Translations under genes and position numbers: made by a program
From: an uncultured Roseburia sp.
Lineage (GTDB): Bacteria; Bacillota; Clostridia; Lachnospirales; Lachnospiraceae
Assembly: GCA_944380515.1 (NCBI GenBank)
Contig: CALWHT010000038.1
Span: 88,536-152,535, forward strand
Direction: 5' to 3'
Length of the DNA stretch: 64,000 nucleotides
Notes under the pieces: model-generated
What the model saw: the letters and a program-made list of their open reading frames with translations, nothing else
The model's database searches: none
What the model was told of the DNA's origin: nothing
Shown here: piece after piece, positions 5,337 to 25,116 of the stretch
Layout: each line of letters begins with the position of its first letter
Position numbering within the stretch: position 1 is the first letter of the stretch

Positions 5337-5376
5337 GTTAAAATTAGTTTACAAAGAGTTAAAAAAAGACTATAAT
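5336..5376 (+). promoter_or_regulatory. Promoter of the mutase/GH36/LacI unit with flanking repeat boxes
   Basis: A near-consensus promoter: TTTACA at 5348-5353, a 17-base spacer, TATAAT at 5371-5376. Two direct copies of AGTTAAAA (5336-5343 and 5357-5364), 21 bases apart, flank the -35. Related AGCTAAAA boxes stand before the secreted mannanase and the binding protein, which suggests a shared regulator site; this is inference because the DNA is AT-rich. Confidence 0.65.
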
Positions 5377-5421
5377 TTTTGGTATCAGGATTGATTTCCG
5401 AAAAAGCAGAAAAGGAGAAAA

Positions 5422-7143: not shown

Positions 7144-7153
7144 GGAGGGACAG

Positions 7154-9352: not shown

Positions 9353-9377
9353 ATATAGAAACAAGAGGGAAATTGTT

Positions 9378-10421: not shown

Positions 10422-10446
10422 TGCGAGAAAAAATAAAACTTTATTT

Positions 10447-10480
10447 AGCTAAAATAACGATAAAGCAAGGACTAAATAAT
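10447..10480 (+). promoter_or_regulatory. Candidate regulator boxes upstream of the secreted mannanase
   Basis: AGCTAAAATAA at 10447-10457 lies inside a near-palindrome centred on TTTAGCTAAA (10444-10453). A related GACTAAATAA follows 23 bases later at 10470. Similar paired boxes precede the binding-protein gene (13208, 13230) and the mutase gene. The surrounding 10422-10560 is extremely A-rich and has no coding potential. Binding by one of the two AraC proteins or LacI is only a hypothesis. Confidence 0.3.
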
Positions 10481-10564
10481 AAAGAAATGGCAAAAATAAA
10501 GAAAAATTGAGAGAGGAAACAAAAAAGTATTAGAAAAAGAAAATAAAAAATATTAAAAATTAAA

Positions 10565-10593
10565 TTGAAAATTAGTCAAAAGTAAAGTATAAT
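10565..10593 (+). promoter_or_regulatory. Promoter of the secreted mannanase gene
   Basis: TTGAAA at 10565-10570, a 17-base spacer and a perfect TATAAT at 10588-10593. The resulting leader is about 100 bases long and contains the inverted repeat at 10620-10660. The gene therefore has its own transcript rather than reading through from the LacI gene. Confidence 0.8.
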
Positions 10594-10619
10594 GCAAATA
10601 AATTTTATGGGGGGGCAAT

Positions 10620-10660
10620 AACAGACGGATTGTTTTCGGACAACAGGAGGGCCGTCTGTT
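10620..10660 (+). promoter_or_regulatory. Stem-loop in the mannanase leader
   Basis: A perfect 9-base inverted repeat, AACAGACGG (10620-10628) and CCGTCTGTT (10652-10660), encloses a 23-base loop with an inner TTGT/ACAA pair. It lies about 20 bases after the expected transcription start, followed by AGAGGAGG. There is no U-run after it, so it is not a standard terminator. It may be an operator or an RNA-stabilising 5' hairpin. Confidence 0.5.
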
Positions 10661-10698
10661 GTGCAATATATCATAATATTTAGAGGAGGTATTACACA

Positions 10699-12111
10699 AT
10701 GCGTAAAAAATGGAACAGGGTTCTTACGCATGCCCTCGCATTTGCATTGCTTTTTACGATGGCTATGGGGGTAGCAGGTGCAGAGGCGAAGGCGGAGAGC
10801 AGCGGGAACTCGGGAAGGTTTGAAACGGTAATCGAGTTTGAGGATGCGAAACGTTTTGAACAGAACGGAAGGAATGAACTGGGTTCATCCAGGTTCTCCG
10901 GTTATTCGGGAAGCGGATACCTGTATCTGGTCTCCGGGTGGGGCGAGGTAGGCTTTACGGTACCGCAGGACGGTGAGTACAGGATTACGGTTGTGTCCAA
11001 TGCGGATACCTACAAAGAGAACTGGCTCTATCTCGACGAGAACAGTGCCGGCACTCTCTATACCGCGGGCAATCGCTGGGAGTCCCACACGGTGACAAGC
11101 TGGCTGTCGGCCGGAGAGCATAAGTTCGGCGTATCGGCAAGCTGGGGATATACGGCACTGGACTATGTGCGGGTAGAGGCTGTCGGCAATTCTTCCGGCG
11201 GCTCACAGGAGCAGCAGGGCAGCGGTATGTATGTGGAAAACGGAAAGCTTTACGCGGCAAACGGCAGTGAGTTTATGCTAAGGGGCGTAAACGTGGCCCA
11301 TGCATGGTATCCCGAGCAGACGCAGACCTCTATCAATGCGATTGCGGATTTAGGCGCAAACAGTGTGCGGGTGGTACTGGCAGACGGATATCAGTGGACG
11401 AAAACGGAATATTCCGAGGTAGAACAGATTATTTCCTGGTGTGAGTCGAGGGGCCTGATCTGTATTCTGGAGGTACATGACCATACGGGACATGATGGGG
11501 AATGGGAATTAAATACCGCGGTGGATTACTGGTGCGGAATGAAGGATTTGCTGAATGAGCACAGCGATTACGTGATTGTCAATATCGCGAACGAATGGCT
11601 GGGAACCTGGGGATACGGCAGTACCTGGGCAAGTGCGTATCAGAATGCGATCCGCACCCTGCGCAATGCCGGGATTGAGAATGTGCTTATGGTGGACGCA
11701 GCCGGTTACGGGCAGGAGACATCGAGCTGTATCAATTATTGTCAGAGCGTCGCATCCGCGGATGTGATGGGCAATACCATGTTTTCCATGCATATGTATT
11801 CGGTAGCTGGGAAAGACGCTTCCACTGTTCGGGGCAATATTGATGCCATGCTTTCCAAAGGTGTGTGCTTCTGCATCGGAGAGTTCGGCGATTACCAGAA
11901 CGGCGGTGATGTGGATGAGACAACCATTATGAGCTACTGTACGGAAAAGGGCGTCGGTTATATGGCGTGGTCCTGGAAGGGCAACGGCGGCTCGGATGCG
12001 ACGCTGGATTTATCGTATGACTGGAACGGGCAGAGCCTCACCGGCTGGGGAAGCTATGTATTTTATGCGAACGGCATCGGTATTCAGGCGACTGCAAAAA
12101 AGGCATATTAA
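10699..12111 (+). CDS. Secreted CBM35-GH5 (subfamily 8-like) endo-beta-1,4-mannanase
   Basis: A 470-residue extracellular enzyme. A signal peptide covers about residues 1-30, ending near AGAEAKAES. Residues about 40-155 form a CBM35-like mannan-binding module (IEFEDAKRF, FSGYSGSGYLYL, TALDYVRVEA). The GH5 catalytic domain runs from about 175 to 470 and resembles Bacillus GH5_8 mannanases (MLRGVNVAHAWY, GANSVRVVLADG). The acid/base is Glu299 (NIANEWLGTW) and the nucleophile Glu395 (CIGEFGDY). No cell-wall anchor (LPXTG, SLH) is seen, so the enzyme may be released or held by unknown means. It makes the oligosaccharides that the adjacent ABC importer takes up. Transcribed alone, it ends at a strong terminator. 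Confidence 0.92.
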   Translation: MRKKWNRVLTHALAFALLFTMAMGVAGAEAKAESSGNSGRFETVIEFEDAKRFEQNGRNELGSSRFSGYSGSGYLYLVSGWGEVGFTVPQDGEYRITVVSNADTYKENWLYLDENSAGTLYTAGNRWESHTVTSWLSAGEHKFGVSASWGYTALDYVRVEAVGNSSGGSQEQQGSGMYVENGKLYAANGSEFMLRGVNVAHAWYPEQTQTSINAIADLGANSVRVVLADGYQWTKTEYSEVEQIISWCESRGLICILEVHDHTGHDGEWELNTAVDYWCGMKDLLNEHSDYVIVNIANEWLGTWGYGSTWASAYQNAIRTLRNAGIENVLMVDAAGYGQETSSCINYCQSVASADVMGNTMFSMHMYSVAGKDASTVRGNIDAMLSKGVCFCIGEFGDYQNGGDVDETTIMSYCTEKGVGYMAWSWKGNGGSDATLDLSYDWNGQSLTGWGSYVFYANGIGIQATAKKAY

Positions 12112-12125
12112 TCGGAATAAGCCGA

Positions 12126-12172
12126 AAACGGCGGCGGAATCGTATACCTCCGGTACGATTCCGCCGCCGTTT
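12126..12172. terminator. Bidirectional terminator between mannanase and AraC genes
   Basis: A perfect 19-base-pair stem, arms 12126-12144 and 12154-12172, with a 9-base loop, sits between two convergent genes. The outer flanks AGCCG and CGGCT extend it, and T-rich sequence follows on the plus strand. It probably ends both transcripts. Confidence 0.85.
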
Positions 12173-12181
12173 GGTTTACGG

Positions 12182-13084
12182 CTATTTTTTGTGCGTCTGC
12201 TGTCTGCGGTACGCGCCCGGCGTCAGGCCGTTTGCCCGCTTGAACAGTGATATAAAATGGTTGGTGGTGTCAAAGCCTACCGATGAAGCGATTTCATGCA
12301 CCGGAATGTCCGTTGTAAGAAGAAGCTCCCTGGCAGCGCTTAAACGCCGCTCGTTTAAATATTGCAGTGGCGAAACGCCGAAGGCGGCGGAAAAATCCCG
12401 GCAAAGACGGTATTTGCTCACATTGAGCGTCTGTTCAAAGTCGGCGAGCGAATAGTGCGCGGCAAAGGAAGTATCGAAGCATTTTTTCATATAGAGAAGA
12501 TGAGGTGCAGGTCCGTCTGCTTCCTCCTGTCTGCCGCGGCAGTCGAGTGCGAGATCGGAAAGAATATTCGTAAAGCATTTTACGTCGAGTACCTCGTTGC
12601 GCCTGAGCGGATTTCGGTTGTTCTTTTCGAGCATCTGCAAATGCCCGGAAATTTCGGAATGGCCCGAAAGGTCAAACGGCATCGTTTTGCTGTCGATCAG
12701 CGGGGAAAATGCAGAAATGGCCGAGCCGGTGAGAAAGTAAAGCTCAAAATTCCAGAAATCCCCGTCGATGGATACGGAGAAGGGCTGCCGGCAGTCAAAA
12801 AAAAGCAATGTCCGCTCTTTTAAGGAAAATTTTCCTTCCCTGCAGTTAAGAGCACCTCTGCCGTTCTTTGTGTAAAGCAGAATATGGCAGCCAAGTGAGC
12901 GGAGCTGCCAGGAAAAGGGCGGGGAGACGGAATGGCTGCCGTAGGCCAGGACCGTTACCAGACCTTCGATTTCGTTTTCCTCATTTGTTTCGTAGACGCT
13001 CCCGAGCAGTGAGGAAAGCTCGGTGTCAGATGTAAGGGACGGCAGGCGTATCAGTGCTGTTCTTAACTCCGCAGTCAGGTTCAT
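12182..13084 (-). CDS. AraC-family transcriptional regulator, second in the mannan locus
   Basis: A 300-residue regulator. The N-terminal part looks like a cupin-type ligand domain (FSWQLRSLGCHILLYTKNGRG, LKERTLLFFD). The C-terminal domain has two helix-turn-helix units (SLADFEQTLNVSKYRLCRDFSAAFGVSPLQYLNERRL and PVHEIASSVGFDTTNHFISLFKRANGLTPGAYRR). It is divergent from the binding-protein gene across a 342-base spacer with repeated AGCTAAAA boxes, so it is a good candidate activator of the importer-to-isomerase operon. It shows no close resemblance by eye to the AraC protein at 3354-4271 outside the DNA-binding domain. Confidence 0.88.
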   Translation of the reverse strand: MNLTAELRTALIRLPSLTSDTELSSLLGSVYETNEENEIEGLVTVLAYGSHSVSPPFSWQLRSLGCHILLYTKNGRGALNCREGKFSLKERTLLFFDCRQPFSVSIDGDFWNFELYFLTGSAISAFSPLIDSKTMPFDLSGHSEISGHLQMLEKNNRNPLRRNEVLDVKCFTNILSDLALDCRGRQEEADGPAPHLLYMKKCFDTSFAAHYSLADFEQTLNVSKYRLCRDFSAAFGVSPLQYLNERRLSAARELLLTTDIPVHEIASSVGFDTTNHFISLFKRANGLTPGAYRRQQTHKK

Positions 13085-13116
13085 GGTTTTCCTCCGTTCT
13101 GAAAAATATTAAAGTT

Positions 13117-13145
13117 ATTATAGGGCCTGGAGAGGTCAAATACAA
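13117..13145 (-). promoter_or_regulatory. Promoter of the second AraC gene
   Basis: On the minus strand, TTGTAT (13145-13140) and TATAAT (13122-13117) are separated by 17 bases, giving a short leader of about 25 bases with a GGAGG ribosome site. Confidence 0.7.
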
Positions 13146-13207
13146 GTCGATGTACCATATATCCTCTTAAAATTGCAGTGCTAATCCGGAAATTAAGTTA
13201 TTTAAAA

Positions 13208-13240
13208 AGCTAAAAAATAAGTAAATATAAGCTAAAATTA
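13208..13240 (+). promoter_or_regulatory. Tandem AGCTAAAA boxes upstream of the importer operon
   Basis: AGCTAAAAAATAA at 13208-13220 and AGCTAAAATTA at 13230-13240 are direct repeats 22 bases apart, about two helical turns, as expected for an AraC-type dimer site. They lie about 100-130 bases upstream of the putative -35. The surrounding 13170-13426 is extremely AT-rich without coding potential. It also contains GTGC/GCAC inverted half-sites at about 13293-13306. Confidence 0.4.
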
Positions 13241-13345
13241 AAAAAAGTGATAGTGATAATACACAAAAAAGAAAGAATAAATTTGGTTATAGTGCGAAAA
13301 TGCACAATATGAGCAAAAATGATACATAAAAAACAAGAATAGATG

Positions 13346-13373
13346 ATGACTAAAAAATGAAATAATATATAAT
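13346..13373 (+). promoter_or_regulatory. Probable promoter of the mannan importer operon
   Basis: ATGACT at 13346-13351 and TATAAT at 13368-13373 are separated by 16 bases, leaving a leader of about 47 bases before the binding-protein gene. The poor -35 suits an activated promoter. Confidence 0.55.
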
Positions 13374-13426
13374 TAAATTAAGTTACAAAACAAGAGTAAC
13401 AAAAAAAGAAGGAGGAAATATTTATT

Positions 13427-14893
13427 ATGAAATTGAAAAAAGTTTTGGCGGTTACACTGATTGCCGCAATGACAGCCGGCATGGCGGCCTGCGGAAACAC
13501 AAACGCAAACACGACGAACAGCGATCAGACGGGCACTACCACAAACAATGCGGCTGATGATGCGGTAGCGGCAACCGAGAGTGGTGACGCAGCGGCTGAT
13601 GACGGTGCTGCTGAAAGCGGTGCATTATCCTACGCTGATATTACATTGGGTGAGGATTACACGGATTTGACAACCACGATTACGGTATTTAACCACAGGA
13701 CAGACCTTCAGTCTGCGGACTACAACGGAACGACCTGGGATGAGTATCTGGCAGCATTCAATGAGATGTATCCGAACATTACGGTAGAAATTACAACAGA
13801 TACCAACTATGCGGACGACGCTCTGATGCATTTACAGTCCGGTGATTATGAGACCATCATGATGATTCCTGCGGTTGACAAGGCAGATTTGAGCAATTAC
13901 TTCCTCTCCTACGGTGATCTGGAGACCATGCAGGGAGAAATCAACTACGCTACCACCTGGGAGTACGGCGGAGAGGTTTACGGAGTACCTTCCACGGCAA
14001 CCACACAGGGAATCGTATACAATAAGAAAGTATTTGAAGAGGCAGGCATCACGGAGCTTCCGACGACTCCGGATGAGTTTATCGCAGCGCTTCAGGCAAT
14101 TAAGGACAACACCGATGCGATCCCGCTTTACACGAACTATGCAGCAGGCTGGACGATGGGCGCATGGGATGCTTACATCGGAAGCAACGCAACCGGCGAC
14201 AATACATACATGAATCAGAAGTTCGTTCATACGGCAAATCCGTTCCAGGATTACGGCGACGGTACACATGCTTATGCGGTTTACAAGATTCTTTACGATG
14301 CAGTTGCAAACGGACTGACCGAGGAAGACTATTCCACGACTGACTGGGAAGGCTGCAAGGGTATGATCAACAACGGTGAAATCGGTTGTATGGTACTTGG
14401 CTCCTGGGCTTATCCGCAGATGGAGGCAGCCGGCGAGAATGCGGCAGATATCGGATATATGCCGTTCCCGATTACCATCAACGGCGAACAGTACGCGGCA
14501 GCAGGCGCTGACTACTCCTACGGTATCAACGTAAACGCTTCCGCTGACGAGCAGGCTGCGGCTATGGTCTTTGTAAAATGGATGACCGAGGAATCGGGAT
14601 TCTCCTACAACGAGGACGGACTTCCGGTTGACGCTGACAGCACCGAGACAAAGCTTTCCTTCGAGGGCGTAACCTTCCTTGAGGACGAACCGGCTGTAGC
14701 AGGCGAGGAGGATTTGTTAAATCAGATGAACACCGAGTCAGAGCTGAATATCAATGCCGGCGGTGATGCTAAGATTCAGTCTATCATCGAGCATGCATTC
14801 AACGGTACGATGACCTTCGACGAGATTATGGATGACTGGAACCAGCGCTGGACTGAGGCACAGGAAGCATTGGAAGTAGAAGTAACACAATAA
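13427..14893 (+). CDS. ABC transporter sugar-binding lipoprotein (manno-oligosaccharide type)
   Basis: A 488-residue family-1 extracellular solute-binding protein. A lipoprotein signal with a MAACG lipobox near residue 20 is followed by an Asn/Thr/Ala/Asp-rich spacer to about residue 65 and then the bilobal binding fold (DLTTTITVFNHRTD ... YGVPSTATTQGIVYNKKVFEEAGI ... LGSWAYPQMEAAG). It should capture beta-manno-oligosaccharides at the cell surface and deliver them to the two permeases just downstream. Substrate is inferred from the locus, as for the Roseburia mannan-binding protein. The ribosome site AAGGAGGAAA is strong, suiting high expression. Codon use favours A/T-ended optimal codons more than its neighbours. 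Confidence 0.88.
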   Translation: MKLKKVLAVTLIAAMTAGMAACGNTNANTTNSDQTGTTTNNAADDAVAATESGDAAADDGAAESGALSYADITLGEDYTDLTTTITVFNHRTDLQSADYNGTTWDEYLAAFNEMYPNITVEITTDTNYADDALMHLQSGDYETIMMIPAVDKADLSNYFLSYGDLETMQGEINYATTWEYGGEVYGVPSTATTQGIVYNKKVFEEAGITELPTTPDEFIAALQAIKDNTDAIPLYTNYAAGWTMGAWDAYIGSNATGDNTYMNQKFVHTANPFQDYGDGTHAYAVYKILYDAVANGLTEEDYSTTDWEGCKGMINNGEIGCMVLGSWAYPQMEAAGENAADIGYMPFPITINGEQYAAAGADYSYGINVNASADEQAAAMVFVKWMTEESGFSYNEDGLPVDADSTETKLSFEGVTFLEDEPAVAGEEDLLNQMNTESELNINAGGDAKIQSIIEHAFNGTMTFDEIMDDWNQRWTEAQEALEVEVTQ

Positions 14894-14902
14894 TGGAAAT
14901 AC

Positions 14903-14926
14903 GGGAGAGGGCCCGTCGGCTCTCCC
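14903..14926 (+). terminator. Intercistronic stem-loop after the binding-protein gene
   Basis: GGGAGAG (14903-14909) and CTCTCCC (14920-14926) form a 7-base-pair stem, followed by a second GCCGG...CCGGC pairing further on. No U-run follows. Its place between a binding protein and its permeases fits an attenuator or 3'-stabilising hairpin that makes the binding protein more abundant. Confidence 0.5.
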
Positions 14927-15026
14927 CATAAGGAAAAAGCCGGGCTTTGGGCTGCCCCCTTTGACAGCTCATGGTCCGGCATAATCCATAAGAACAGGTT
15001 TGAATTTCATATGGAGGAAGTTGGGT

Positions 15027-16064
15027 ATGGCAGCAACAGTTGCAAAAGTAAAAAAAGAGAAAAAACCCTTCCATTTTATGCAATGGGCGAAAAGCAGAAA
15101 GGGACAGCAGGTGCTTATCTGTGTGGCTTTTATGGTAATACCGCTGTTACTTCTGTTTACCTTTACCTATCTGCCCTTTGGCGAAATGGTAAGATTCAGT
15201 TTTTATGATATGAAATATTCCACGCCGGCGGATAAACGGGAGTTTGTCGGTTGGGAAAACTATATCGACGTATTCCGCAGGGACGACTGCTTTGGCGCGT
15301 TAAAGCTGAGTCTCTATTATGTGGTAGGCGCGCTGATACAGCTCGCGCTTGCGTTGTATCTGGCAACAATTTTGAGCTTTAAGGTAAAGGGAGGAAACTT
15401 CTTTAAGGGCTTAATGTTTTTCCCATACTTGATCAGCGGTATTGCAATTGGATTTATCTTTAAATTTTTCTATACCAGAGGCTTCGTATTCGATACGGTG
15501 CTGCAGTGGCTTGGCTTTGAACTCGAAAATCTTCCATACTGGTTGCGGGATCAGTCGATTAATAACTGGTCTCTGGTAGCTACCTCCGTCTGGCGTTATT
15601 TCGGCCAAAATATGGTGCTCTTTATCGGCGCGATTATGTCGGTGGACGCGGATTTATATGAGGCGGCGGAACTGGATGGTGCAAATAAATTTCAGCAGTT
15701 TCGGCATATTATCCTGCCGAGTATCAAGACGATCGTGACCCTGAACGTTATTCTTTCCATCACGGGCTCCCTGAGCGCATTTGAACAGCCGTATGTAATT
15801 ACGGACGGAGCAAACGGAACGGGCACCTATTTCGTAATTATGAACGAGCTGGCACATACGAGCCAGAAGGTCGGCCTTGCGTCGGCAATGGCGGTTGTAT
15901 TGCTTTTGATCATTTTCGCATGTACGATTTTACAGAAGCTGTTCTTTAAGTATATCTTCCGTGACGCCGAGAGCGAGGATGAATCCTACAAGGCAAAACG
16001 GGCAAGGCTGAAAGCGGAGAAGGCAGCCCTCCGCGCCGAGAAGGCAAAGAAAGGGGTGGCGTAA
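15027..16064 (+). CDS. Sugar ABC transporter permease (MalF-like)
   Basis: A 345-residue inner-membrane permease with six predicted membrane segments and the EAA loop (DADLYEAAELDGANKFQQFRHIILPSI) that contacts the ATPase. The C-terminus has a long basic, Ala/Lys-rich tail (KAKRARLKAEKAALRAEKAKK). The start at 15027 is chosen over an in-frame upstream ATG because GGAGGAAG lies 6 bases before it. With the next gene it forms the translocation pore. No ATP-binding gene is in this operon, so a shared MsmK-type ATPase elsewhere is expected. Confidence 0.92.
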   Translation: MAATVAKVKKEKKPFHFMQWAKSRKGQQVLICVAFMVIPLLLLFTFTYLPFGEMVRFSFYDMKYSTPADKREFVGWENYIDVFRRDDCFGALKLSLYYVVGALIQLALALYLATILSFKVKGGNFFKGLMFFPYLISGIAIGFIFKFFYTRGFVFDTVLQWLGFELENLPYWLRDQSINNWSLVATSVWRYFGQNMVLFIGAIMSVDADLYEAAELDGANKFQQFRHIILPSIKTIVTLNVILSITGSLSAFEQPYVITDGANGTGTYFVIMNELAHTSQKVGLASAMAVVLLLIIFACTILQKLFFKYIFRDAESEDESYKAKRARLKAEKAALRAEKAKKGVA

Positions 16065-16067
16065 GCG

Positions 16068-16940
16068 ATGAGAACACATGTAGCGGTACAAAAAAGAAGA
16101 AAACACTATACCGTGGGCGGCATTATCTGGCTGTTCGTGGAGTACGCATCGCTGATTTTCTTCGGCTTTTGCGCGGTGCTCCCGGTAGTATCCTGTGTCA
16201 TTACGGCATTTAAGACAGAGGAGGAATATCAGAGCACGAATGTTATGACCCTGCCGGAGAGCTGGCTGAATTTTGATAATTTTATCAGGGCATTTGAGAC
16301 GGCGGATATGGGGCGTGCATTTTTAAACTCCTTAATCGTCATGGTATCCGTACTGTTGATTTCCATTATCATCGGTACGCAGCTTGCCTATGTATTGAAC
16401 CGTTTTCAGTTTCCGGGAAACGGACTGATCCGTAATCTGTTCCTGTTTGCGTCCCTGCTTCCGGCGGTTGCGATGCAGGTAACGGTTTATAACATCATGA
16501 CAGCCCTTGGGTTTGTCAATCATCTTTACGGCTATATCATCATGATGTGCGGAACTGACGTTATTTCCATTTACATATTCATTCAGTTTATGGAGAACAT
16601 ACCGACTTCGCTTGACGAATCCGCGATTATCGACGGCGCGTCTTACTGGACGATTTACTGGAAGATCATGCTTCCGCTGTTGAAACCGGCGATTGTGACT
16701 TCCTGTATCTTAAAGGGTGTGGGTGTGTACAACGAATACTACTGTGCAAACCTGTACCTTCAGAGACCGGAGCTGCACACGATAGCGACCTCGCTGTACA
16801 CCTTCGTCGGCCCGATGGGAAGCCAGTATAACCTGATTTGCGCGGGTGTTATCATCTCCCTGCTTCCGGCACTGATTGTATTTATTCTCTGCCAGAAACA
16901 GATTTACAGCGGCATCGCGGCCGGTGCGGTTAAGGGTTAA
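16068..16940 (+). CDS. Sugar ABC transporter permease (MalG-like)
   Basis: A 290-residue membrane permease with about six segments and an EAA-type loop (ESAIIDGASYWTIYWKIMLPLLKPAI). It starts 3 bases after the previous permease stop, and translation is probably coupled. It completes the membrane part of the manno-oligosaccharide importer. The C-terminus ends in the usual GAVKG pattern of MalG-type carbohydrate permeases. Confidence 0.93.
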   Translation: MRTHVAVQKRRKHYTVGGIIWLFVEYASLIFFGFCAVLPVVSCVITAFKTEEEYQSTNVMTLPESWLNFDNFIRAFETADMGRAFLNSLIVMVSVLLISIIIGTQLAYVLNRFQFPGNGLIRNLFLFASLLPAVAMQVTVYNIMTALGFVNHLYGYIIMMCGTDVISIYIFIQFMENIPTSLDESAIIDGASYWTIYWKIMLPLLKPAIVTSCILKGVGVYNEYYCANLYLQRPELHTIATSLYTFVGPMGSQYNLICAGVIISLLPALIVFILCQKQIYSGIAAGAVKG

Positions 16941-16969
16941 ATGAATAACAGAAAAAGAGGATTACGGCA

Positions 16970-18205
16970 ATGAATAGTCTTTTACAACTTGCAGAGGAAA
17001 CAAAAAAGGAGTTGCTGTACCATATTATTCCCTTTTGGATGAGCCTTCGGGACGAGCGGTACGGGGGATATTACGGATGGCTTTCCTATGATTTAAAGCT
17101 TGATAAGCAGGCGGAAAAGGGCTGTATCTTAAACAGCCGCATCACCTGGTTTTTTGCCAATGCCTATATGCTTTACAAGGACGGCGGCATCACCGGGGAG
17201 GAATGTCAGGCGGCGGGCTACAGTCCCGAGCGCCTGCTCGAGGAGGCAAAGCACGGGTATGCATTTCTGACGGAGCATTGCATCGACAGGGAAAACGGCG
17301 GGATTTACTGGTCCTTAAATTACGACGGGACACCGCTTGATACGACAAAGCATACCTACAATCAGGCGTTTTGTATTTATGCGCTGTCCTCCTATTATGA
17401 GGCGTCGGGAGAGAAAGAGGCGCTTGCGCTTGCGCTGGAGCTGTTTGACATCATTGAAAAACGCTGTACGGATGAGGTCGGATATCTTGAAGCGTTTACA
17501 AGAGACTTTCGGCCCGAATCCAACGAGAAGCTTTCGGAGAACGGAGTGCTTGCCGATAAGACCATGAATACGCTGCTTCATGTATTTGAAGCGTACACGG
17601 AGCTGTACCGGGTATCCGGAGAGCCAAAGGTCAGAGAGCGCCTTACCTGGATGCTTGGGATTTTTGCGGAAAAGGTGTACAATCCGGCGAAGCACCGTCA
17701 GGAGGTGTTCTTTGACGCGCAGTACCGCACGATTCTCGATTTACATTCCTACGGACATGACATTGAGACGGCGTGGCTGATGGATAGAGGTCTTGACGTT
17801 TTGGATGAGACGGCATGGCGGGAGCGGATGTCTCCGATCACCGCGGACCTTGTTGCAGAGGTGTACCGCACGGCGTTTAACGGTGAGTCGTTTGCCAACG
17901 AGTGCGAGAAGGGCGTCGTGAATACGCACCGTATCTGGTGGGTGCAGGCGGAAGCGCTGGTAGGCTTTTTGAACGCCTGGCAGAGGATGCCGGAGCATGA
18001 GGAGTATTTAAAGGCGGCGCTTTGCCAGTGGGAATTTATCAAAAAATATGTCATCGACGGCCGCGACGGCTCCGAGTGGTTCTGGGAGGTAAACGAGGAC
18101 GGAAGCCCGATTCTTGGGCGGCCCATCGTAGAGCCCTGGAAATGCCCGTATCATAACGGACGGATGTGCATAGAGGTCATCAGACGGGCCTCTGCAAACT
18201 TATGA
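16970..18205 (+). CDS. AGE-family cellobiose/mannobiose 2-epimerase
   Basis: A 411-residue cytoplasmic (alpha/alpha)6-barrel enzyme. Family landmarks are LPFWMSLRDERYGGYYGWLSYD-like opening residues, NSRITWFFANAY, TKHTYNQAFCIYALSSYY, YGHDIETAWLMDRGL and NTHRIWWVQAEALVGFLNA; the conserved His residues in the last two are candidate catalytic bases. The enzyme should convert the reducing-end mannose of mannobiose to glucose, giving Man-beta-1,4-Glc for the downstream GH130 phosphorylase. Position immediately before two GH130 genes supports this rather than a role on cellobiose. Confidence 0.9.
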   Translation: MNSLLQLAEETKKELLYHIIPFWMSLRDERYGGYYGWLSYDLKLDKQAEKGCILNSRITWFFANAYMLYKDGGITGEECQAAGYSPERLLEEAKHGYAFLTEHCIDRENGGIYWSLNYDGTPLDTTKHTYNQAFCIYALSSYYEASGEKEALALALELFDIIEKRCTDEVGYLEAFTRDFRPESNEKLSENGVLADKTMNTLLHVFEAYTELYRVSGEPKVRERLTWMLGIFAEKVYNPAKHRQEVFFDAQYRTILDLHSYGHDIETAWLMDRGLDVLDETAWRERMSPITADLVAEVYRTAFNGESFANECEKGVVNTHRIWWVQAEALVGFLNAWQRMPEHEEYLKAALCQWEFIKKYVIDGRDGSEWFWEVNEDGSPILGRPIVEPWKCPYHNGRMCIEVIRRASANL

Positions 18206-18229
18206 AAATCAGACAGGATGGTGAAACAT

Positions 18230-19408
18230 ATGCTGCATGAAAGATATTATGTGGAAAAAGCAAAGCAGGAAAAGCTGCTGGAAAGAAAAAATGTAAAATC
18301 CGATTTTTATAACGGCGTGTTTGAACGGTACGAATATCCGGTGCTGACCAGGGAGCATATCCCGCTGACCTGGCGGTATGATTTAAATCCCGCGACAAAT
18401 CCTTATTTTATGGAGCGCCTTGGCATTAACGCGGTGATGAATTCCGGAGCGATTGAGCTGAACGGAAAATACTACCTGGTTGCGAGAATCGAGGGGAATG
18501 ACAGAAAATCCTTTTTCGGCGTGGCGGAGAGTGACAACGGAATCGACGGCTTCCGCTTCTGGGATTATCCGGTAGAGCTTCCGGATACCTGCCCGGAGGA
18601 GACGAATGTCTATGATATGCGGTTGACGAAGCATGAGGACGGTTATATCTACGGTGTGTTCTGCTCCGAGAGCAAGGATAAAAGTGTGAATGACCTGTCG
18701 GCGGCGGTGGCGGCGGCAGGAATCGTGCGCACGAAGGACTTAAAAAACTGGGAGCGTCTGCCGAACCTTGTGACGCTTCATTCACCGCAGCAGAGAAACG
18801 TCGTGCTTCATCCGGAATTTGTGAACGGGAAGTATGCGTTTTATACCAGACCGATGGATGATTTCATCGACACGGGTTCGGGCGGCGGCATCGGTTTCGG
18901 ACTTTGCGACGATATTACGCACGCGGTGATTGACGAAGAAAAAATGACGAGCCTGCGTAAGTATCATACCATCACCGAGGCGAAGAACGGCGCCGGAGCG
19001 ACGCCGATAAAAACGGAGCGGGGCTGGATCCATATCGCCCACGGCGTCAGAAACACGGCGGCGGGACTGCGCTATGTCATCTATGCGTTTGCAACGGATT
19101 TAAACGACCCGTCGCAGGTGATCGCGGAGCCGTCCGGTCTTTTGATCGGGCCGAGGGAGGCAGAGAGAGTCGGTGACGTCAGCAATGTCGTATTCACCAA
19201 CGGCGCGATCGTCAACGAAAAGAATGAGGTATTTATTTATTATGCATCCTCCGATACCAGGATGCACGTGGCGACGACAACGCTGGAGCGATTGGTGGAT
19301 TATGTATTTTCCACGCCGGAGGATCCGGGACGCAGCGCGACCTGCGTGCAGCAGAGGTGCGATCTGATTCGAAGGAATCTGGAGTTTTTAAAAGGAGAGG
19401 AAAAATAA
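18230..19408 (+). CDS. GH130 mannosylglucose phosphorylase (subfamily 1 type)
   Basis: A 392-residue five-bladed beta-propeller phosphorylase with the GH130 landmarks [66 protein letters not shown] and [12 protein letters not shown]. The length and N-terminal extension match the GH130_1 type, which phosphorolyses 4-O-beta-mannosyl-glucose to mannose-1-phosphate and glucose. The start at 18230 is preferred to 18218 because AGGATGG lies 8 bases before it. It pairs with the epimerase immediately upstream and the second GH130 downstream. Confidence 0.9.
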
Positions 19409-19445
19409 AAAATGCCGCTTAAGCTGCGGCGGAAAGAGGAAGAAC

Positions 19446-20468
19446 ATGAGTAAGTATACAATGGTGAGCCCCAAGGTGCCGAATGTGCCGTGGCAGGAGC
19501 GTCCCGAAAATCTGAGCGGGGCGCCGGTATGGAGATATAAGGAGAACCCGATCATCGGACGCAATCCGGTAAAAGGCGTTGCAAGAATTTTCAACAGTGC
19601 GGTAATGCCTTACGGCGACGGCTTTATCGGCGTGTTCCGCGGGGAGCAGACGAACGGGATTCCCTATATTTATCTGGGAAGAAGCGAGGATGCGATTCAC
19701 TGGAATTTTGAGGAAAATAAAATTGATTTCGTGGATGAGGAAGGAAAGCCGTTTATGCCGGTATATGCCTACGACCCGCGTCTGGTGAAGGTGGAGGACA
19801 CCTACTATATCATCTGGTGCCAGGATTTCTACGGAGCGGCGATCGGAATGGCAAAAACGACGGATTTTAAGACCTTTACGAGAATCGAGAATCCGTTCCT
19901 TCCGTTTAACAGGAACGCGGTATTGTTCCCGCGCAAAATCCACGGAAACTATATGCTGCTTTCCCGTCCTTCCGACAGCGGACACACGCCGTTTGGCGAT
20001 ATTTTCTTAAGTGAGAGCCCGGATTTGGTGTACTGGGGCAAGCACAGACATGTGATGGGCAAGAGCTCGGAATGGTGGGAATCGTTAAAAATCGGCGGCG
20101 GTGCAGCTCCGATTGAGACCTCCGAGGGCTGGCTTTTGTTCTACCACGGGGTAAGCGGAACCTGCAACGGCTATGTGTACTCCATCGGCGGTGCGATTTT
20201 GGATATCGACAATCCTTCAATCGTAAAATACCGCTGTGAGACATTTCTGCTCACGCCGGAAGAATGGTATGAGGAGCGCGGCTTTGTGCCGAACGTCTGC
20301 TTCCCGTGCGCAACGATCCATGATTCAGAAACAGGAAGAATCGCCATTTATTACGGCGCTGCCGACAGCTATGTAGGGCTTGCGTTTACAGAGCTGGACG
20401 ATATCATTGATTATATCAAAGAGCACAGTGTTGTGACCGCTGCGGACACGGAGATTGGAAGACGTTAA
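19446..20468 (+). CDS. GH130 beta-1,4-manno-oligosaccharide phosphorylase (subfamily 2 type)
   Basis: A 340-residue GH130 enzyme, shorter than its neighbour, with AYDPRLVKVEDTYYIIW (likely catalytic Asp region), RIFNSAVMPYGDGFIGVFRGE, IGGGAAPIETSEGWLLFYHG and YYGAADSYVGLAF. It fits GH130_2 enzymes that remove mannose from the non-reducing end of beta-1,4-manno-oligosaccharides as mannose-1-phosphate. Two adjacent GH130 genes of different subtype are the hallmark of Roseburia-type mannan loci. Subfamily is judged from length and motifs, so exact specificity is inferred. Confidence 0.9.
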   Translation: MSKYTMVSPKVPNVPWQERPENLSGAPVWRYKENPIIGRNPVKGVARIFNSAVMPYGDGFIGVFRGEQTNGIPYIYLGRSEDAIHWNFEENKIDFVDEEGKPFMPVYAYDPRLVKVEDTYYIIWCQDFYGAAIGMAKTTDFKTFTRIENPFLPFNRNAVLFPRKIHGNYMLLSRPSDSGHTPFGDIFLSESPDLVYWGKHRHVMGKSSEWWESLKIGGGAAPIETSEGWLLFYHGVSGTCNGYVYSIGGAILDIDNPSIVKYRCETFLLTPEEWYEERGFVPNVCFPCATIHDSETGRIAIYYGAADSYVGLAFTELDDIIDYIKEHSVVTAADTEIGRR

Positions 20469-20505
20469 ATAGCCTTCTTACTATATTTGATCATATAAAT
20501 TCACG

Positions 20506-20549
20506 CATGACAGGGCTGCTGCAGGTTATTTTGCGGTAGCCCTGTCATG
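20506..20549 (+). terminator. Strong intercistronic stem-loop before the CE2 gene
   Basis: CATGACAGGGCT (20506-20517) and AGCCCTGTCATG (20538-20549) form a perfect 12-base-pair stem that extends inward by five further pairs including two wobbles. The ribosome site CGGAGGG follows within 10 bases. No U-run of note follows, so it may be a partial terminator, an RNase block or a translation modulator splitting the operon before the esterases. Confidence 0.6.
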
Positions 20550-20566
20550 TTTCGGAGGGAAGATTC

Positions 20567-21628
20567 ATGTTAGTATTACCGAATCAAAAGGAGCTGCAAT
20601 ACAGCGGGAGGATTGATTTTGAGGATCCGCTTGCGCCTGTCCTGATTTATGCGTGCAGCTCCGTAAAAATAAGATTTACAGGCACATCAGTAAAGACGGT
20701 CATCGAGAATCATCACGCCTACTGGACCAACCGGCTCGGATATATCCTGGACGGGGAGCAGGGCTGCTTCGTGCTGCCGGACGCGGAGGGGAAACAGGTG
20801 TATACGCTCGCGGAAAATCTGGCAGAGGGAGAGCATGAGCTGCTTTTGTTTAAACGGATGGATTCCTGCCATACGATTACCTTTTTCGGATTTGAGCTGG
20901 ATGAGGGGGCAAAGGTGCTTGCGCTGCCGCAAAAGCCGTCCCGCAGGATGGAGTTTTTTGGTGACAGCGTTTCCTGCGGAGAGGTTTCCGAGGCGGTCGC
21001 GTACGCAGGGAAGGAGGACCCGGAGCATGACGGGGAATATTCCAACAGCTGGTATTCCTATGCATGGATGACGGCGCGCAGACTCGGCGCGGAAATTCAC
21101 GATACCTCACAGGGGGGAATCGCCCTGTTAAGCGGAACCGGCTGGTTTGCGGCGCCCGGATATCTGGGAATGGAAGACTGTTATGATAAGCTGGAATACA
21201 ATCCTGATTTGGGAGTGACAAAGCAGTGGGATTTTTCAAAATATACCCCGCAGGTGGTCGTGGTGGCAATCGGACAGAATGACAACCATCCCGAGGATTA
21301 TATGGCGGAAAATTATGACGGCGAAAAGGCTGTATACTGGCGGAAACATTACCGGATGTTTATCGAGCGCCTTATGGAGCTTTACCCGGGAGCGCAGATC
21401 ATTCTTGCGACGACGATTCTGGAGCACGACGCGTCCTGGGACAGGGCGATTGGGGAGGTATGCAAAGAAATCGGAAGCGGCAGGGTACATCATTTTCTGT
21501 ACAGCAAAAACGGCTGCGGTACGCCGGGGCATATCCGTATTCCCGAGGCCAGGCAGATGGCGGAAGAACTGACAGGATTTATCGAGACGCTCGGAGACGG
21601 GATTTGGGCAGAGGAAAAAGGAGAATAG
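20567..21628 (+). CDS. CE2-type acetyl esterase, acetyl-mannan deacetylation
   Basis: A 353-residue cytoplasmic two-domain esterase: an N-terminal jelly-roll (about 1-115) and a C-terminal SGNH hydrolase. SGNH blocks seen: EFFGDSVSCGE (nucleophile Ser), TSQGGIALLSG, VVVVAIGQNDNHPED and GTPGHIRIPEAR (His). The lack of a signal peptide agrees with intracellular deacetylation of imported acetylated manno-oligosaccharides, as in the Roseburia CE2 enzyme. It is followed directly by another esterase, and the two probably remove acetyl groups from different positions. Confidence 0.87.
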   Translation: MLVLPNQKELQYSGRIDFEDPLAPVLIYACSSVKIRFTGTSVKTVIENHHAYWTNRLGYILDGEQGCFVLPDAEGKQVYTLAENLAEGEHELLLFKRMDSCHTITFFGFELDEGAKVLALPQKPSRRMEFFGDSVSCGEVSEAVAYAGKEDPEHDGEYSNSWYSYAWMTARRLGAEIHDTSQGGIALLSGTGWFAAPGYLGMEDCYDKLEYNPDLGVTKQWDFSKYTPQVVVVAIGQNDNHPEDYMAENYDGEKAVYWRKHYRMFIERLMELYPGAQIILATTILEHDASWDRAIGEVCKEIGSGRVHHFLYSKNGCGTPGHIRIPEARQMAEELTGFIETLGDGIWAEEKGE

Positions 21629-21630
21629 AG

Positions 21631-22749
21631 ATGGAGTATCGGATTGATTATGAACGTGGAATCGCAAACAGAGGAAATCTTTTCCGGCTGAAGCGGCTGA
21701 TGGAACGGGCAGAGCGGGGAGAGGAAGTAAGGATTGGCTTTATCGGCGGCTCCATCACGCAGGGGAGCCTGGCGACCAGCCCCGAGCTGTGCTATGCTCA
21801 CCGGGTCTATGAATGGTGGGAAAAGACATTTCCGCAGGCCAAGTTTACTTATATCAATGCCGGCATCGGAGGGACGACCTCGCAGTTCGGCGCTGCCCGC
21901 GTGGAGGACGATTTGCTTTCAAAGGAGCCGGATTTTGTTTTGATCGAATTTTCCGTCAATGACGAGAGCACGGAGCATTTCATGGAGACCTATGAGGGGC
22001 TGGTGCGCAGGGTCTATCTGTCGCAGAAGAAACCGGCGGTGCTTCTGGCGCACAACGTTTATTATCACAACGGGGCGAATGCGCAGGTGATGCACGGGCG
22101 GATTGCAAGGCACTATGACCTGCCCTCGGTCAGCATGCAGAGCAGCATCTATCCGGAGGTTGTGGCGGGACATATCGAAAACAGGACAATCACGCCGGAC
22201 GATTTGCACCCGAACGATGAGGGGCATGCGCTTGTGGCGTCTGTCATCACTTATTTTCTGGAAAAGGTGCGCGGGGAAGGAACGACGGGCGAAACTGAGC
22301 CGGCATGCCCGCAGCCTCTGACGGAAAACGCCTACGAATGTTCTGACCGTTACCGCAATGACAATTCCGCGCCGAAGCTTTCCGGCTTTACGGCGGATTT
22401 AAGCCCGCAGCGGGATATTACGGACTGCTTTAAGCGAGGCTGGATTGCTTCGGAAAAAGGAGACGCCATTACGTTTTCGGTGCGGGGAAGCGGAATTGCC
22501 GTTCAGTACCGCAAATCCGTAAAACTGCCTGCCCCGGTTGCCGAAGTCGTCGTGGACGGCGATGACGCCCATGCCATGAGGCTGGATGCAAACTTTGACG
22601 AGACCTGGGGAGATAAGCTGGAGCTTGACACTGTTTTGGAGCACGGGGAATATAAGGAGCACGAGGTTGAGGTGCGTCTGATCGAGACGCATGAAAATGA
22701 CGCGGTTCCGTTTTATCTTGTTTCCGTGATTGGCTCCGCGCGGCCGTAA
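21631..22749 (+). CDS. CE17-type acetyl-mannan esterase with C-terminal CBM35-like domain
   Basis: A 372-residue intracellular protein. The N-terminal SGNH hydrolase (about 1-215) shows FIGGSITQGS (Ser), NAGIGGTTSQFGA, IEFSVNDES and DDLHPNDEGH (Asp-His). The C-terminal part (about 240-372) is a beta-sandwich of CBM35-like type. This Ser hydrolase plus CBM35 arrangement matches the CE17 family first described from Roseburia intestinalis, which removes 2-O-acetyl groups from mannose. The true start at 21631, with AAGGAGAAT in front, follows the previous stop by 2 bases, so translation is coupled. Confidence 0.85.
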   Translation: MEYRIDYERGIANRGNLFRLKRLMERAERGEEVRIGFIGGSITQGSLATSPELCYAHRVYEWWEKTFPQAKFTYINAGIGGTTSQFGAARVEDDLLSKEPDFVLIEFSVNDESTEHFMETYEGLVRRVYLSQKKPAVLLAHNVYYHNGANAQVMHGRIARHYDLPSVSMQSSIYPEVVAGHIENRTITPDDLHPNDEGHALVASVITYFLEKVRGEGTTGETEPACPQPLTENAYECSDRYRNDNSAPKLSGFTADLSPQRDITDCFKRGWIASEKGDAITFSVRGSGIAVQYRKSVKLPAPVAEVVVDGDDAHAMRLDANFDETWGDKLELDTVLEHGEYKEHEVEVRLIETHENDAVPFYLVSVIGSARP

Positions 22750-22806: not shown

Positions 22807-25116
22807 ATGTTTCGAGATGATTTTGTCTGGGGCGTGGCAAGCAGCGCCTATCAGGTGGAGGGGAGCGACCCTGCGGACGGCAGGGGCAAGACGGTCTGGG
22901 ACGCGTTTACGGAGGACGGGAGGATATTTGAGGGGCAGAACGCCTATACGAGCTGTGACCACCTGCACCGTTACCGGGACGATTACGCGCTTATGAGAAA
23001 CCTTGGCATTAAGGCATACCGTTTCTCTTTAAACTGGGCGCGGATTCTGCCCGAGGGAACCGGGAAGGTCAATGAAAAGGCCGTTGCCATGTACCGTGAT
23101 ATGATTCTGGCGATGAAGGAAAACGGGATTACGCCCTATCTTACGCTGTTTCACTGGGAGTTCCCGCTGGCGCTTTATGAGCGGGGCGGCTGGCTGAATC
23201 CTGATGTTGTGGAGTGGTTCGGAGAATACGCGAAGGTGGTGGCGGAGCGCTTTTCCGATCTTTGCGAATACTTTATTACCATCAATGAGCCGCAGTGCGT
23301 TGTCGGTCTCGGGCATTTGAGCGGCGTGCACGCGCCGGGACTTAAGCTTTCCGTGCGGGAGACCTTTCAGGTTGCCCATAATCTGTTAAAGGCGCACGGA
23401 CAGGCGGTCAAAAGTCTGCGCAAATACGCAGTGCGCCCGATTCAAATCGGTTATGCGCCGACGGGCGGCGTGGCCTATCCCTACACGGACGCGCCCGAGG
23501 ATATCGAGGCTGCAAAAAAGGTATATTTCGGGTTTTATAATCCGATGAGTAATTGGAGCTGGAATGTGGCGTGGTTTTCGGACCCGGTCTTTCTGGGACA
23601 TTACCCGAAGGAGGGGCTTTTAAAGTTTGCGGAATATCTGCCTGAAATTACCCCGGAGGATATGGAACTGATTCATCAGCCGCTGGACTTTATGGGACAG
23701 AATATATATAATGGTTACTATGTACGGGCGGGCAAAGACGGAGAGCCGGAATTTGTCAGCCGTGCGCCGGGATTTCCGAAGACGGCGGCGGACTGGCCCG
23801 TCACGCCGGAGGCATTTTACTACGGCATCAAATTTTTAACGGAGCGCTATCCGCTGCCGCTTTATATTACGGAAAACGGAATGTCCTGCCATGACAATGT
23901 CGCTGCTGACGGCAGGGTGCATGATGCGGACCGTATTACGTTTTTGGATTCCTATATCGGGGCCATGCAGCGCGCGTGCAGCGAGGGGGCCGATGTGCGG
24001 GGATATTTCCTGTGGACCTTTCTGGATAATTTCGAGTGGTCCGACGGCTACCGGCAGCGGTTTGGAATCATTTATGTGGATTTTGCGACGCAAAAGCGAA
24101 TTGTGAAGGATTCTGCGTTCTGGTATCAGAAAATCATTGAGACGAATGGAGAAAGTTTAAGTATGAATCAGTCAAACAGAGAAATTTTATTCCTCAATCC
24201 GGTCTGCACGCACAATATCTGGGGCGGAACAAGACTGCGGGAGGAGTTCGGCTACCCGGTGGAAGGGGACGACATCGGCGAGTGCTGGGGCATTTCCGCT
24301 CATCCGAACGGGGATGGAACCGTCCGTGAGGGAGCGTTTGCCGGAAAGAAGCTGTCCTGGGTATGGGAAAATCATCCCGAGGTATTCGGTAACCTGGCGT
24401 ATGACCGTTTCCCGCTTTTGACCAAAATTATCGACGCGAGAGACGATCTGAGCATTCAGGTGCATCCCGATGATGCCTATGCGAAGGAACACGAGAACGG
24501 CTCCTTCGGCAAGACGGAATGCTGGTATATCATGGACGCGCCCGAGGGAGCGGCGCTTGTGATCGGACACAACGCGAAGACCAGGGAAGAACTTTCGGAT
24601 ATGATACATCAGGGCAGATGGAAGGAATTTATCCGTGAGCTTCCGGTGAAAAAGGGAGATTTTATCCAGATTGACCCCGGGACAGTTCACGCCATCAAGG
24701 GCGGACTGCTGATTTTGGAGACGCAGCAGAACAGCGACATTACCTACCGTGTTTATGATTATGACAGGCTTTCCGGCGGAAAACCGAGAGAGCTGCATGT
24801 GGAAAAGAGTATCGACGTGATTACGGTTCCGGCAAAATCCGCTGCCGACAGTGTGAAGTCTGCTCTGGGGCTTCCGGTGAATCAGCTGAATGAGCTGTAT
24901 TCCTGCGGCTATTACACGATTTTTAAGGTTGATGTGGACGGAAAGCTGTCGTTTGCGCAGGACTATCCGTTTCTGCTCTGTTCGGTGCTCGAGGGTGACG
25001 GCATCGTAAACAGCCACCCGGTGAAAAAAGGCGACCATTTTATTTTACCGAAGGATTTCGGGGAGGTTGAAATGCAGGGTGCGATGAGCCTTATTTTATC
25101 GACCGTGCAGGCATAG
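22807..25116 (+). CDS. Fusion of GH1 beta-glucosidase and class I mannose-6-phosphate isomerase
   Basis: A continuous 769-codon frame holds two complete enzymes. Residues 1 to about 451 are a full-length GH1 beta-glycosidase: FVWGVASSAYQVEG opening, acid/base Glu161 in ITINEPQ, nucleophile Glu356 in YITENGMS, and the usual C-terminal AFWYQKIIETNGE. Residues 453-769 are a full-length class I phosphomannose isomerase starting MNQSNREILFLNPV, with zinc-site motifs IQVHPDDAYAKEHE, KTECWYIM, GTVHAIKGG and ITYRVYDYDR. GH1 would remove non-reducing glucose from glucomannan oligosaccharides and the isomerase converts mannose-6-phosphate to fructose-6-phosphate. There is no linker between them; see the internal start at 24163. 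The start at 22807 has GGGAGAAGGA in front. It is last in the operon. Confidence 0.85.
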   Translation: MFRDDFVWGVASSAYQVEGSDPADGRGKTVWDAFTEDGRIFEGQNAYTSCDHLHRYRDDYALMRNLGIKAYRFSLNWARILPEGTGKVNEKAVAMYRDMILAMKENGITPYLTLFHWEFPLALYERGGWLNPDVVEWFGEYAKVVAERFSDLCEYFITINEPQCVVGLGHLSGVHAPGLKLSVRETFQVAHNLLKAHGQAVKSLRKYAVRPIQIGYAPTGGVAYPYTDAPEDIEAAKKVYFGFYNPMSNWSWNVAWFSDPVFLGHYPKEGLLKFAEYLPEITPEDMELIHQPLDFMGQNIYNGYYVRAGKDGEPEFVSRAPGFPKTAADWPVTPEAFYYGIKFLTERYPLPLYITENGMSCHDNVAADGRVHDADRITFLDSYIGAMQRACSEGADVRGYFLWTFLDNFEWSDGYRQRFGIIYVDFATQKRIVKDSAFWYQKIIETNGESLSMNQSNREILFLNPVCTHNIWGGTRLREEFGYPVEGDDIGECWGISAHPNGDGTVREGAFAGKKLSWVWENHPEVFGNLAYDRFPLLTKIIDARDDLSIQVHPDDAYAKEHENGSFGKTECWYIMDAPEGAALVIGHNAKTREELSDMIHQGRWKEFIRELPVKKGDFIQIDPGTVHAIKGGLLILETQQNSDITYRVYDYDRLSGGKPRELHVEKSIDVITVPAKSAADSVKSALGLPVNQLNELYSCGYYTIFKVDVDGKLSFAQDYPFLLCSVLEGDGIVNSHPVKKGDHFILPKDFGEVEMQGAMSLILSTVQA
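24148..24165 (+). promoter_or_regulatory. manA: Internal ribosome site and ATG at the isomerase start inside the fusion
   Basis: GGAGAAAG at 24148-24155, seven bases, then ATG at 24163, exactly where phosphomannose isomerase homologues begin. An out-of-frame TAA sits at 24158-24160. A separate isomerase polypeptide (317 residues, to 25116) could be made from here as well as, or instead of, the fused protein. Confidence 0.6.

What the first reader, a model, noticed from the sequence alone, without database searches (positions are those of the whole stretch)
22807..25116. GH1 glucosidase fused in frame to mannose-6-phosphate isomerase, with the old start signals intact
Both enzymes are complete and abut without a linker at residue 452. 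The isomerase keeps its own GGAGAAAG ribosome site and ATG (24163). An out-of-frame TAA lies at 24158-24160. Removing one A from the GAAAG run at 24151-24155 would make the frame read GAA GTT TAA, restoring a normal GH1 stop followed by a separate isomerase. So this is either a very recent natural fusion by one-base insertion, a gene that gives both fused and free isomerase, or a homopolymer sequencing error. If real, it joins glucose trimming to the last step of mannose catabolism in one polypeptide.
Basis: partly seen in the sequence, partly recalled or inferred. Interest (0 to 1): 0.75.

Follow-up and report, generated by a model that had tools for sequence, protein, structure and literature searches.

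The report
Old GH1–mannose-6-phosphate isomerase fusion enzyme
A gut bacterium carries a sugar-cutting enzyme joined to a mannose-6-phosphate isomerase in one long protein; the join is real, old, shared by many related gut bacteria and already in print, so it is neither a sequencing slip nor a new event.

Summary
In detail: window 22807-25116 is one open frame of 769 codons, a complete GH1 beta-glucosidase (452) running straight into a complete type I mannose-6-phosphate isomerase (317). The same stop-free join stands in 96 distinct ORFs (57-100% identity), so it is neither a homopolymer error nor a recent one-base insertion. The "old start signals" are not generally kept: codon 453 is a possible start in 41 of 96 (ATG 25). 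It is the GH1-isomerase of the beta-mannan locus published for Roseburia intestinalis (RiGH1) and R. hominis (RhGH1-M6P).

What is added here: (1) the published "inactive glucosidase domain" (residues 1-246) ends inside the GH1 barrel, before the catalytic nucleophile, so its inactivity says little; (2) relatives show other pairings: CE17-isomerase, GH1-CE2, isomerase-ROK kinase, and GH1 carrying only the isomerase's C-terminal cupin; (3) start codon and Shine-Dalgarno-like motif go together in some lineages, a suggestive but unproven sign of free isomerase from internal initiation. Verdict: a new member of a known kind.

The parts
22807..24162 (+). GH1 beta-glucosidase module, residues 1-452
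   Evidence: PF00232 E 5.6e-138; TIGR03356 above cut-off; the model's best PDB match is beta-glucosidase Ks5A7 (9l0n), TM-score by target 0.97, 51% identity
23287..23289 (+). E161, GH1 acid/base (role recalled from the family)
   Evidence: E in 97 of 97 aligned rows, one row being a duplicate of the window
23872..23874 (+). E356, GH1 nucleophile (role recalled from the family)
   Evidence: E in 96 of 97 rows; K in L087
24148..24162 (+). Join: SD-like GGAG and out-of-frame TAA (24158-24160) within the coding sequence
   Evidence: not generally conserved as a start signal
24163..25116 (+). Type I mannose-6-phosphate isomerase module, residues 453-769, with stop
   Evidence: PF20511 and PF21621; TIGR00218 manA above cut-off; PDB 1qwr, mannose-6-phosphate isomerase, E 7.3e-100
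24457..24690 (+). Q551, H553, E571 and H628, metal ligands of type I isomerases (role recalled)
   Evidence: 97 of 97 rows for each, one row a duplicate
24901..25104 (+). C-terminal cupin of the isomerase; the piece that stays on GH1 in L189, L214 and, weakly, L023
   Evidence: PF21621 residues 699-766; profile search of the tails
21631..22749 (+). CE17-like acetylesterase gene just upstream (CE17 name by likeness to the published locus)
   Evidence: Lipase_GDSL_2 (searched from 21634, one codon inside); ATG at 21631; relatives of it are the nearest upstream locus gene within 400 nt in 43 of 80 fused loci
4398..21628 (+). Rest of the mannan locus: GH113, phosphomannomutase-like, GH36, LacI, GH5, solute-binding protein, two permeases, epimerase, two GH130, CE2 (one AraC-like gene on the minus strand at 12182-13084)
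   Evidence: Pfam for GH113 and GH5, GH130 and CE2; the others named by eye from translations and locus order and by likeness to the published loci

Best explanation
It is an old, fixed, bifunctional, probably cytosolic enzyme of the Lachnospiraceae beta-mannan utilisation locus. The N-terminal GH1 module most likely removes beta-linked glucose (or a related sugar) from imported gluco-manno-oligosaccharides. The C-terminal module turns mannose-6-phosphate, made by the mutase from the mannose-1-phosphate of the GH130 phosphorylases, into fructose-6-phosphate for glycolysis. The two modules follow each other without a disordered linker; nothing suggests chemical channelling, so the gain is probably co-expression at 1:1 and shared folding. 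Shown: the frame, its conservation, intact catalytic residues, locus context, and (by others, in R. intestinalis) isomerase activity of the C-terminal part. Inferred: location, GH1 activity and substrate, and the benefit of the join.
For: 96 distinct stop-free fused ORFs with the same join. Fused over the full length in 19 of 194 genomes including the window's own, 17 of 397 drawn from the family, own included, and 4 of 391 drawn from the class, own included, all four in the same family. Three fused relatives lie in genomes held as one or two contigs (G052, G035, G054). The 99% relative is a separate assembly with identical DNA over the 45 bases shown at the join. Catalytic residues kept. Mannan genes in the held flank of 75 of 80 fused loci. 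Only type I isomerase found in this genome by two searches. AlphaFold2 model pLDDT 93.1, pTM 0.87, block 451-460 pLDDT 90. Published: RiGH1_D2 converts M6P and F6P (PMC6385246, passages); RhGH1-M6P (PMC9784577, passages).
Against: In the one published test that I saw, the N-terminal piece was inactive on all substrates tried (but it was residues 1-246, half a barrel). The join is not indispensable: standalone isomerases sit among fused ones in the tree (12 changes), and some have GH1 remnants upstream. It is patchy: most genomes searched lack it. A single origin is neither shown nor rejected. No reads were available for the window itself.
Confidence: 0.9

Rival explanations
1. One gene, two products: in the window's lineage and some others, ribosomes also start at codon 453 and make free isomerase beside the fusion.
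For: Start codon and SD-like motif go together: SD-like energy in 29 of 41 with a start against 13 of 55 without; glycine 448 is GGA/GGG in 39 of 41 against 26 of 55. In 38 start-type ORFs mean energy -8.1 against -6.25 for synonymous shuffles and -2.7 before other internal ATGs; in 49 others -4.46 against -4.36. On 11 independent pairs the two go the same way 4.9 times against 0.4. Among start-type ORFs the 8-codon window from residue 452 is in the top 1% of synonymous identity (but it holds codon 453, by which the group was chosen). Standalone isomerases L114 and L115, with a GH1 scrap upstream, match from the residue-453 equivalent, an ATG.
Against: Sign test median p 0.125; 0.625 and 0.5 in the smaller set of 87. 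The windows over the SD-like stretch itself show no excess of synonymous identity (starts 439-447: 24% to 69% of windows score as high). Only 3 of 38 reach the 5% level against synonymous shuffles, and the window itself does not (0.41). The window's value is matched by 15% of its ATGs.
Confidence: 0.25
2. Very recent fusion by one-base insertion in this lineage.
For: The frame arithmetic works.
Against: The fusion is shared down to 57% identity with no stop at the join.
Confidence: 0.01
3. Homopolymer sequencing error joining two genes.
For: The window lies in a draft assembly (66 contigs).
Against: 96 distinct ORFs agree on the frame while the letters at the join differ widely.
Confidence: 0.01
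4. The GH1 module has lost catalysis and serves as a scaffold for the isomerase.
For: Published N-terminal construct inactive (PMC6385246); one ORF (L087) has K for the nucleophile; isomerases without GH1 occur among fused ones.
Against: Acid/base and nucleophile kept in 97 and 96 of 97 rows; the published construct lacks the nucleophile; GH1 also stands without the isomerase's catalytic part.
Confidence: 0.07

Closest known systems
RiGH1 (ROSINTL182_05469/70), Roseburia intestinalis mannan locus MULL, PMC6385246
   Same: Same two modules, near-identical length (768) and same kind of locus; isomerase activity shown there
   Different: Published boundary is residue 246/247; here GH1 runs to about 448-452. 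L004 (single 4,493,348-bp contig, 768 aa; R. [quoted passage not shown]
RhGH1-M6P, Roseburia hominis A2-183, PMC9784577
   Same: Described as bifunctional GH1 plus mannose 6-phosphate isomerase in the mannan-oligosaccharide locus
   Different: Prediction only in the passages seen; another species
FpGH1 'GH1 isomerase', Faecalibacterium prausnitzii, PMC8262883
   Same: Same role assigned in an equivalent locus
   Different: Whether it is fused was not tested here; no fused ORF appeared outside the window's family in a draw of 391 class genomes, whose names are not given
Mannose-6-phosphate isomerase 1qwr (from Bacillus subtilis, recalled)
   Same: Residues 5-314 of the C-terminal module
   Different: Standalone, 319 residues

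Membership tests
GH1 beta-glucosidase (TIGR03356, PF00232) | Curated score cut-off | tested here: met
   496.9 against 478.5 bits; 460.6 against 22.6
GH1 beta-glucosidase (TIGR03356, PF00232) | Two catalytic glutamates (recalled) | tested here: met
   E161 97 of 97, E356 96 of 97 rows
GH1 beta-glucosidase (TIGR03356, PF00232) | Hydrolysis of beta-glucosides | not testable with these tools
   Published construct 1-246 inactive, but it lacks E356
6-phospho-beta-glucosidase/galactosidase | Curated score cut-off | tested here: not met
   best 323.8 against 610 bits
Type I mannose-6-phosphate isomerase (TIGR00218) | Curated score cut-off and metal ligands (ligands recalled) | tested here: met
   205.3 against 116.2 bits; Q551, H553, E571, H628 in 97 of 97 rows
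Type I mannose-6-phosphate isomerase (TIGR00218) | M6P/F6P interconversion | not testable with these tools
   Shown by others for RiGH1_D2 (PMC6385246, passage)
RiGH1-type GH1-isomerase of mannan loci | Both modules in one frame, in a locus with GH130, epimerase and CE2/CE17 | tested here: met
RiGH1-type GH1-isomerase of mannan loci | Single evolutionary origin | tested here: inconclusive
   33 of 36 fused representatives in one 100/99 GH1 clade, three deep ones outside it with weak support; holding all 43 fused and interleaved rows together is not rejected, p-AU 0.438. The p-AU 0.025 left out two rows nested in the clade (L188, L190) and so tests something else

The most novel reading that the evidence does not exclude
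The mannan locus of Lachnospiraceae is a fusion hub: enzymes of one intracellular pathway (GH1, CE2, CE17, the isomerase, a ROK kinase) are joined and re-joined in different pairs, with the isomerase's C-terminal cupin kept as a structural part of GH1; and some lineages, the window's among them, also make free isomerase from an internal start inside the fused gene.
Probability: 0.25. Interest if true: 0.55.

Novelty: new member of a known kind. Interest (0 to 1): 0.3.

Why it matters
It settles that the fusion is biology and not an artefact. It shows that the only activity test of the GH1 half that I found used a construct cut inside the barrel, so the glucosidase should be retested whole. The other pairings in relatives (CE17-isomerase, GH1-CE2, GH1-cupin, isomerase-ROK) make a natural set for asking why enzymes of one pathway get tied together.

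Tried and rejected
Sequencing error and recent insertion: rejected on the relatives. Relic start signal as a general feature: rejected. 6-phospho-glycosidase: cut-offs not met. Single fusion origin: a first tree put all 39 fused GH1 rows in one 100% clade with L022 and L023; with deeper fused rows three fall outside (its bootstrap had not settled). A first one-clade test gave p-AU 0.025 but left out L188 and L190, which lie inside the clade; with them in, p-AU is 0.438. So one origin is neither shown nor rejected. L022/L120 was first taken for GH1 with a decayed isomerase; three-frame reading past its stop shows no isomerase that I could recognise, though the trees carry the label 'decayedMPI'. 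For the cupin tails, Pfam's own model reaches its cut-off only for L189; L023 stays below it (E 0.072) and L214 is not listed; the profile made here finds all three.

Papers: searches held nothing; 48 and 9 led to the papers cited; two listed 1 and 2 papers with titles on other subjects, not opened. PMC13278490 (passages) has no 'isomerase' in its text. Passages only were seen in all five papers opened.

Rows left out and biases: one search kept the best 80 of 254, which favours full-length fusions. ORF counts need one tblastn match from residue 5 or earlier to 755 or later, so frame-broken or contig-edge copies (L021/L122, L024, L123, L130, L213) are not in the 96; identical cores were merged; L186 and L235 (the same place in G338) were dropped for internal stops. 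One search has 97 rows, one (L002) a duplicate of the window; one search uses 96. Trees used thinned sets: 39 of 87, 36 of 96, with standalone rows of my choosing. Structure alignments held 78 (A1) and 39 (A2) rows. SD energies use one anti-SD string recalled from memory. In one search the CE17 start was taken one codon late.

Full report
Observation. Window 22807-25116 is one reading frame of 769 codons. Residues 2-448 match GH1 over nearly the whole model, and the rest holds the catalytic and cupin domains of type I mannose-6-phosphate isomerase. Both halves pass NCBI's equivalog cut-offs, as GH1 beta-glucosidase and as manA; the 6-phospho-glycosidase models stay far below theirs. The SD-like GGAG, the ATG at 24163 and the out-of-frame TAA are as described.

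Is it real and how old. The fusion was found stop-free over the full length in 19 of 194 genomes including the window's own, 17 of 397 drawn from the family and 4 of 391 drawn from the class, own included each time; those four are all of the same family. The 80 loci kept from the genome-contig scan match over residues 1 or 2 to 760 or beyond at 66-99% identity; they are the best 80 of 254, so the set leans towards fusions. Named records include Roseburia faecis M72, R. hominis An869 and Pseudobutyrivibrio xylanivorans DSM 14809. After removal of duplicates there are 96 distinct fused ORFs, the window's included. The nearest relative, a separate metagenome assembly at 99%, has the same 45 bases at the join. 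A homopolymer error or a recent insertion is excluded.

The junction. Among 96 ORFs codon 453 is ATG in 25 and a possible start (ATG or GTG) in 41; the others encode mostly Ile, Val and Cys. A stop in the +1 frame near the join occurs in 39 of 96. The 'ribosome site' lies in the coding of a conserved Asn-Gly-x tail. Yet ORFs with a start codon more often have the stronger SD-like motif (29 of 41 against 13 of 55), and their Gly-448 codon is GGA or GGG in 39 of 41 against 26 of 55. Relatedness explains an unknown part of this: over 11 independent pairs the two traits go the same way 4.9 times and opposite 0.4 times, median p 0.125; in the smaller set of 87, median p 0.625 and 0.5. Synonymous identity over the SD-like stretch is not raised; the window just after it is (top 1% from residue 452), but it includes the codon by which the group was chosen. 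Internal initiation in some lineages is open, not shown.

Function. The locus resembles the beta-mannan utilisation loci described in R. intestinalis and R. hominis: GH113, mutase, GH36, LacI, transporter, epimerase, two GH130, CE2 and CE17-like esterases, then this gene. Of 80 fused loci, 75 have GH130, CE2, CE17, epimerase, GH113 or GH36 relatives in the stretch held. In R. intestinalis GH130 phosphorylases give mannose-1-phosphate, the mutase mannose-6-phosphate, and the isomerase fructose-6-phosphate (PMC6385246, passages). In the window's genome this is the only type I isomerase found; other isomerase types were not searched for. The GH1 half keeps both catalytic glutamates, and its best solved match is beta-glucosidase Ks5A7, TM-score 0.97 by target. 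The full model has pLDDT 93.1 and pTM 0.87 with an ordered join, which suggests a defined packing of the two modules; coordinates could not be inspected.

The published construct. PMC6385246 (passages) divides the R. intestinalis protein into D1 (1-246), inactive, and D2 (247-768), an active isomerase. The single-contig relative L004, which also encodes 768 residues, has Met at 247 and its TENG nucleophile motif at 355-358. D1 thus lacks the nucleophile and the second half of the barrel. [quoted passage not shown] I infer that the D1/D2 border comes from two locus tags, and that GH1 activity has not been fairly tested.

Evolution. In the GH1 tree 33 of 36 fused representatives fall in one clade (100/99) with four module-swapped rows (L187, L189, L214, L023) and three GH1 without isomerase (L022, L188, L190); three deep fused rows (L181, L182, L184) lie outside with weak support. 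Holding all 43 together is not rejected (p-AU 0.438). In the isomerase tree standalone and fused rows are mixed (12 changes). Some standalone isomerases have GH1 remnants upstream: L112 (31 residues at 61%, E 9e-7, and a tail of the join), L114 and L115 (11 of 11 residues, E 0.001 and 0.002); L113, L116, L118 and L119 show none beyond chance. So GH1 has been lost from fused genes at least there; whether other standalone rows are losses or separate origins is open.

Module exchange. CE17-isomerase fusions occur in G050, G448 and G917, with esterase motifs and all four isomerase ligands in place. GH1-CE2 occurs in two of four genomes of one genus (G424, G916), with GH1 and esterase motifs in place. 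GH1 with only the isomerase's C-terminal cupin occurs in G442 (E 9.8e-22), G911 (6.8e-8) and, weakly, G048 (0.006; best of 1000 shuffled tails 0.17); Pfam's own cut-off is met only by the first. The G911 tail is modelled as folded (pLDDT 78-92). In G338 a GH1 gene is followed after about 80 nt by an isomerase-ROK gene. Isomerase-GH5, isomerase-PHP and GH1-GH5 frames also occur. I found nothing in print on CE17-isomerase or GH1-CE2 in searches (three papers listed in 74; passages seen in two, PMC8262883 and PMC7666174); that is a narrow search of open-licence papers only.

Verdict. A real, old bifunctional enzyme, already in print as a kind. Its new sides are the domain-border correction, the module-exchange pattern and an untested chance of internal initiation.

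Noticed in passing
L232:5946-8015, L219:1603-3705, L244: CE17 esterase fused in frame to the isomerase in three genomes (G050, G448, G917).
   Followed up: partly
L187:1477-3918, L238: GH1 fused in frame to CE2 esterase in place of the isomerase, in two of four genomes of one genus.
   Followed up: partly
L189, L214, L023: GH1 keeps only the C-terminal cupin of the isomerase (L023 weakly); the catalytic part is gone.
   Followed up: partly
L186:592-3966 (same place as L235): Separate GH1 gene about 80 nt before an isomerase-ROK kinase fusion; a possible ancestral-like order.
   Followed up: partly
L220:3261-5765, L222:1402-3384, L228:1717-3978: Further long frames: isomerase-GH5, isomerase-PHP, GH1-GH5.
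   Followed up: no
L188 (G413): GH1 ends with two stops right at the usual join; no isomerase match follows in the stretch held.
   Followed up: no
L087:1245-3560: The only one of 97 fused rows with Lys in place of the GH1 nucleophile (TKNG for TENG).
   Followed up: no
L122 (G034): Fused gene broken by a frame change around residue 520 in a draft genome.
   Followed up: no
window:26593-27870: Serpin gene (PF00079, E 9e-88) with a lipoprotein-like N-terminus (by eye), two genes after the fusion.
   Followed up: partly
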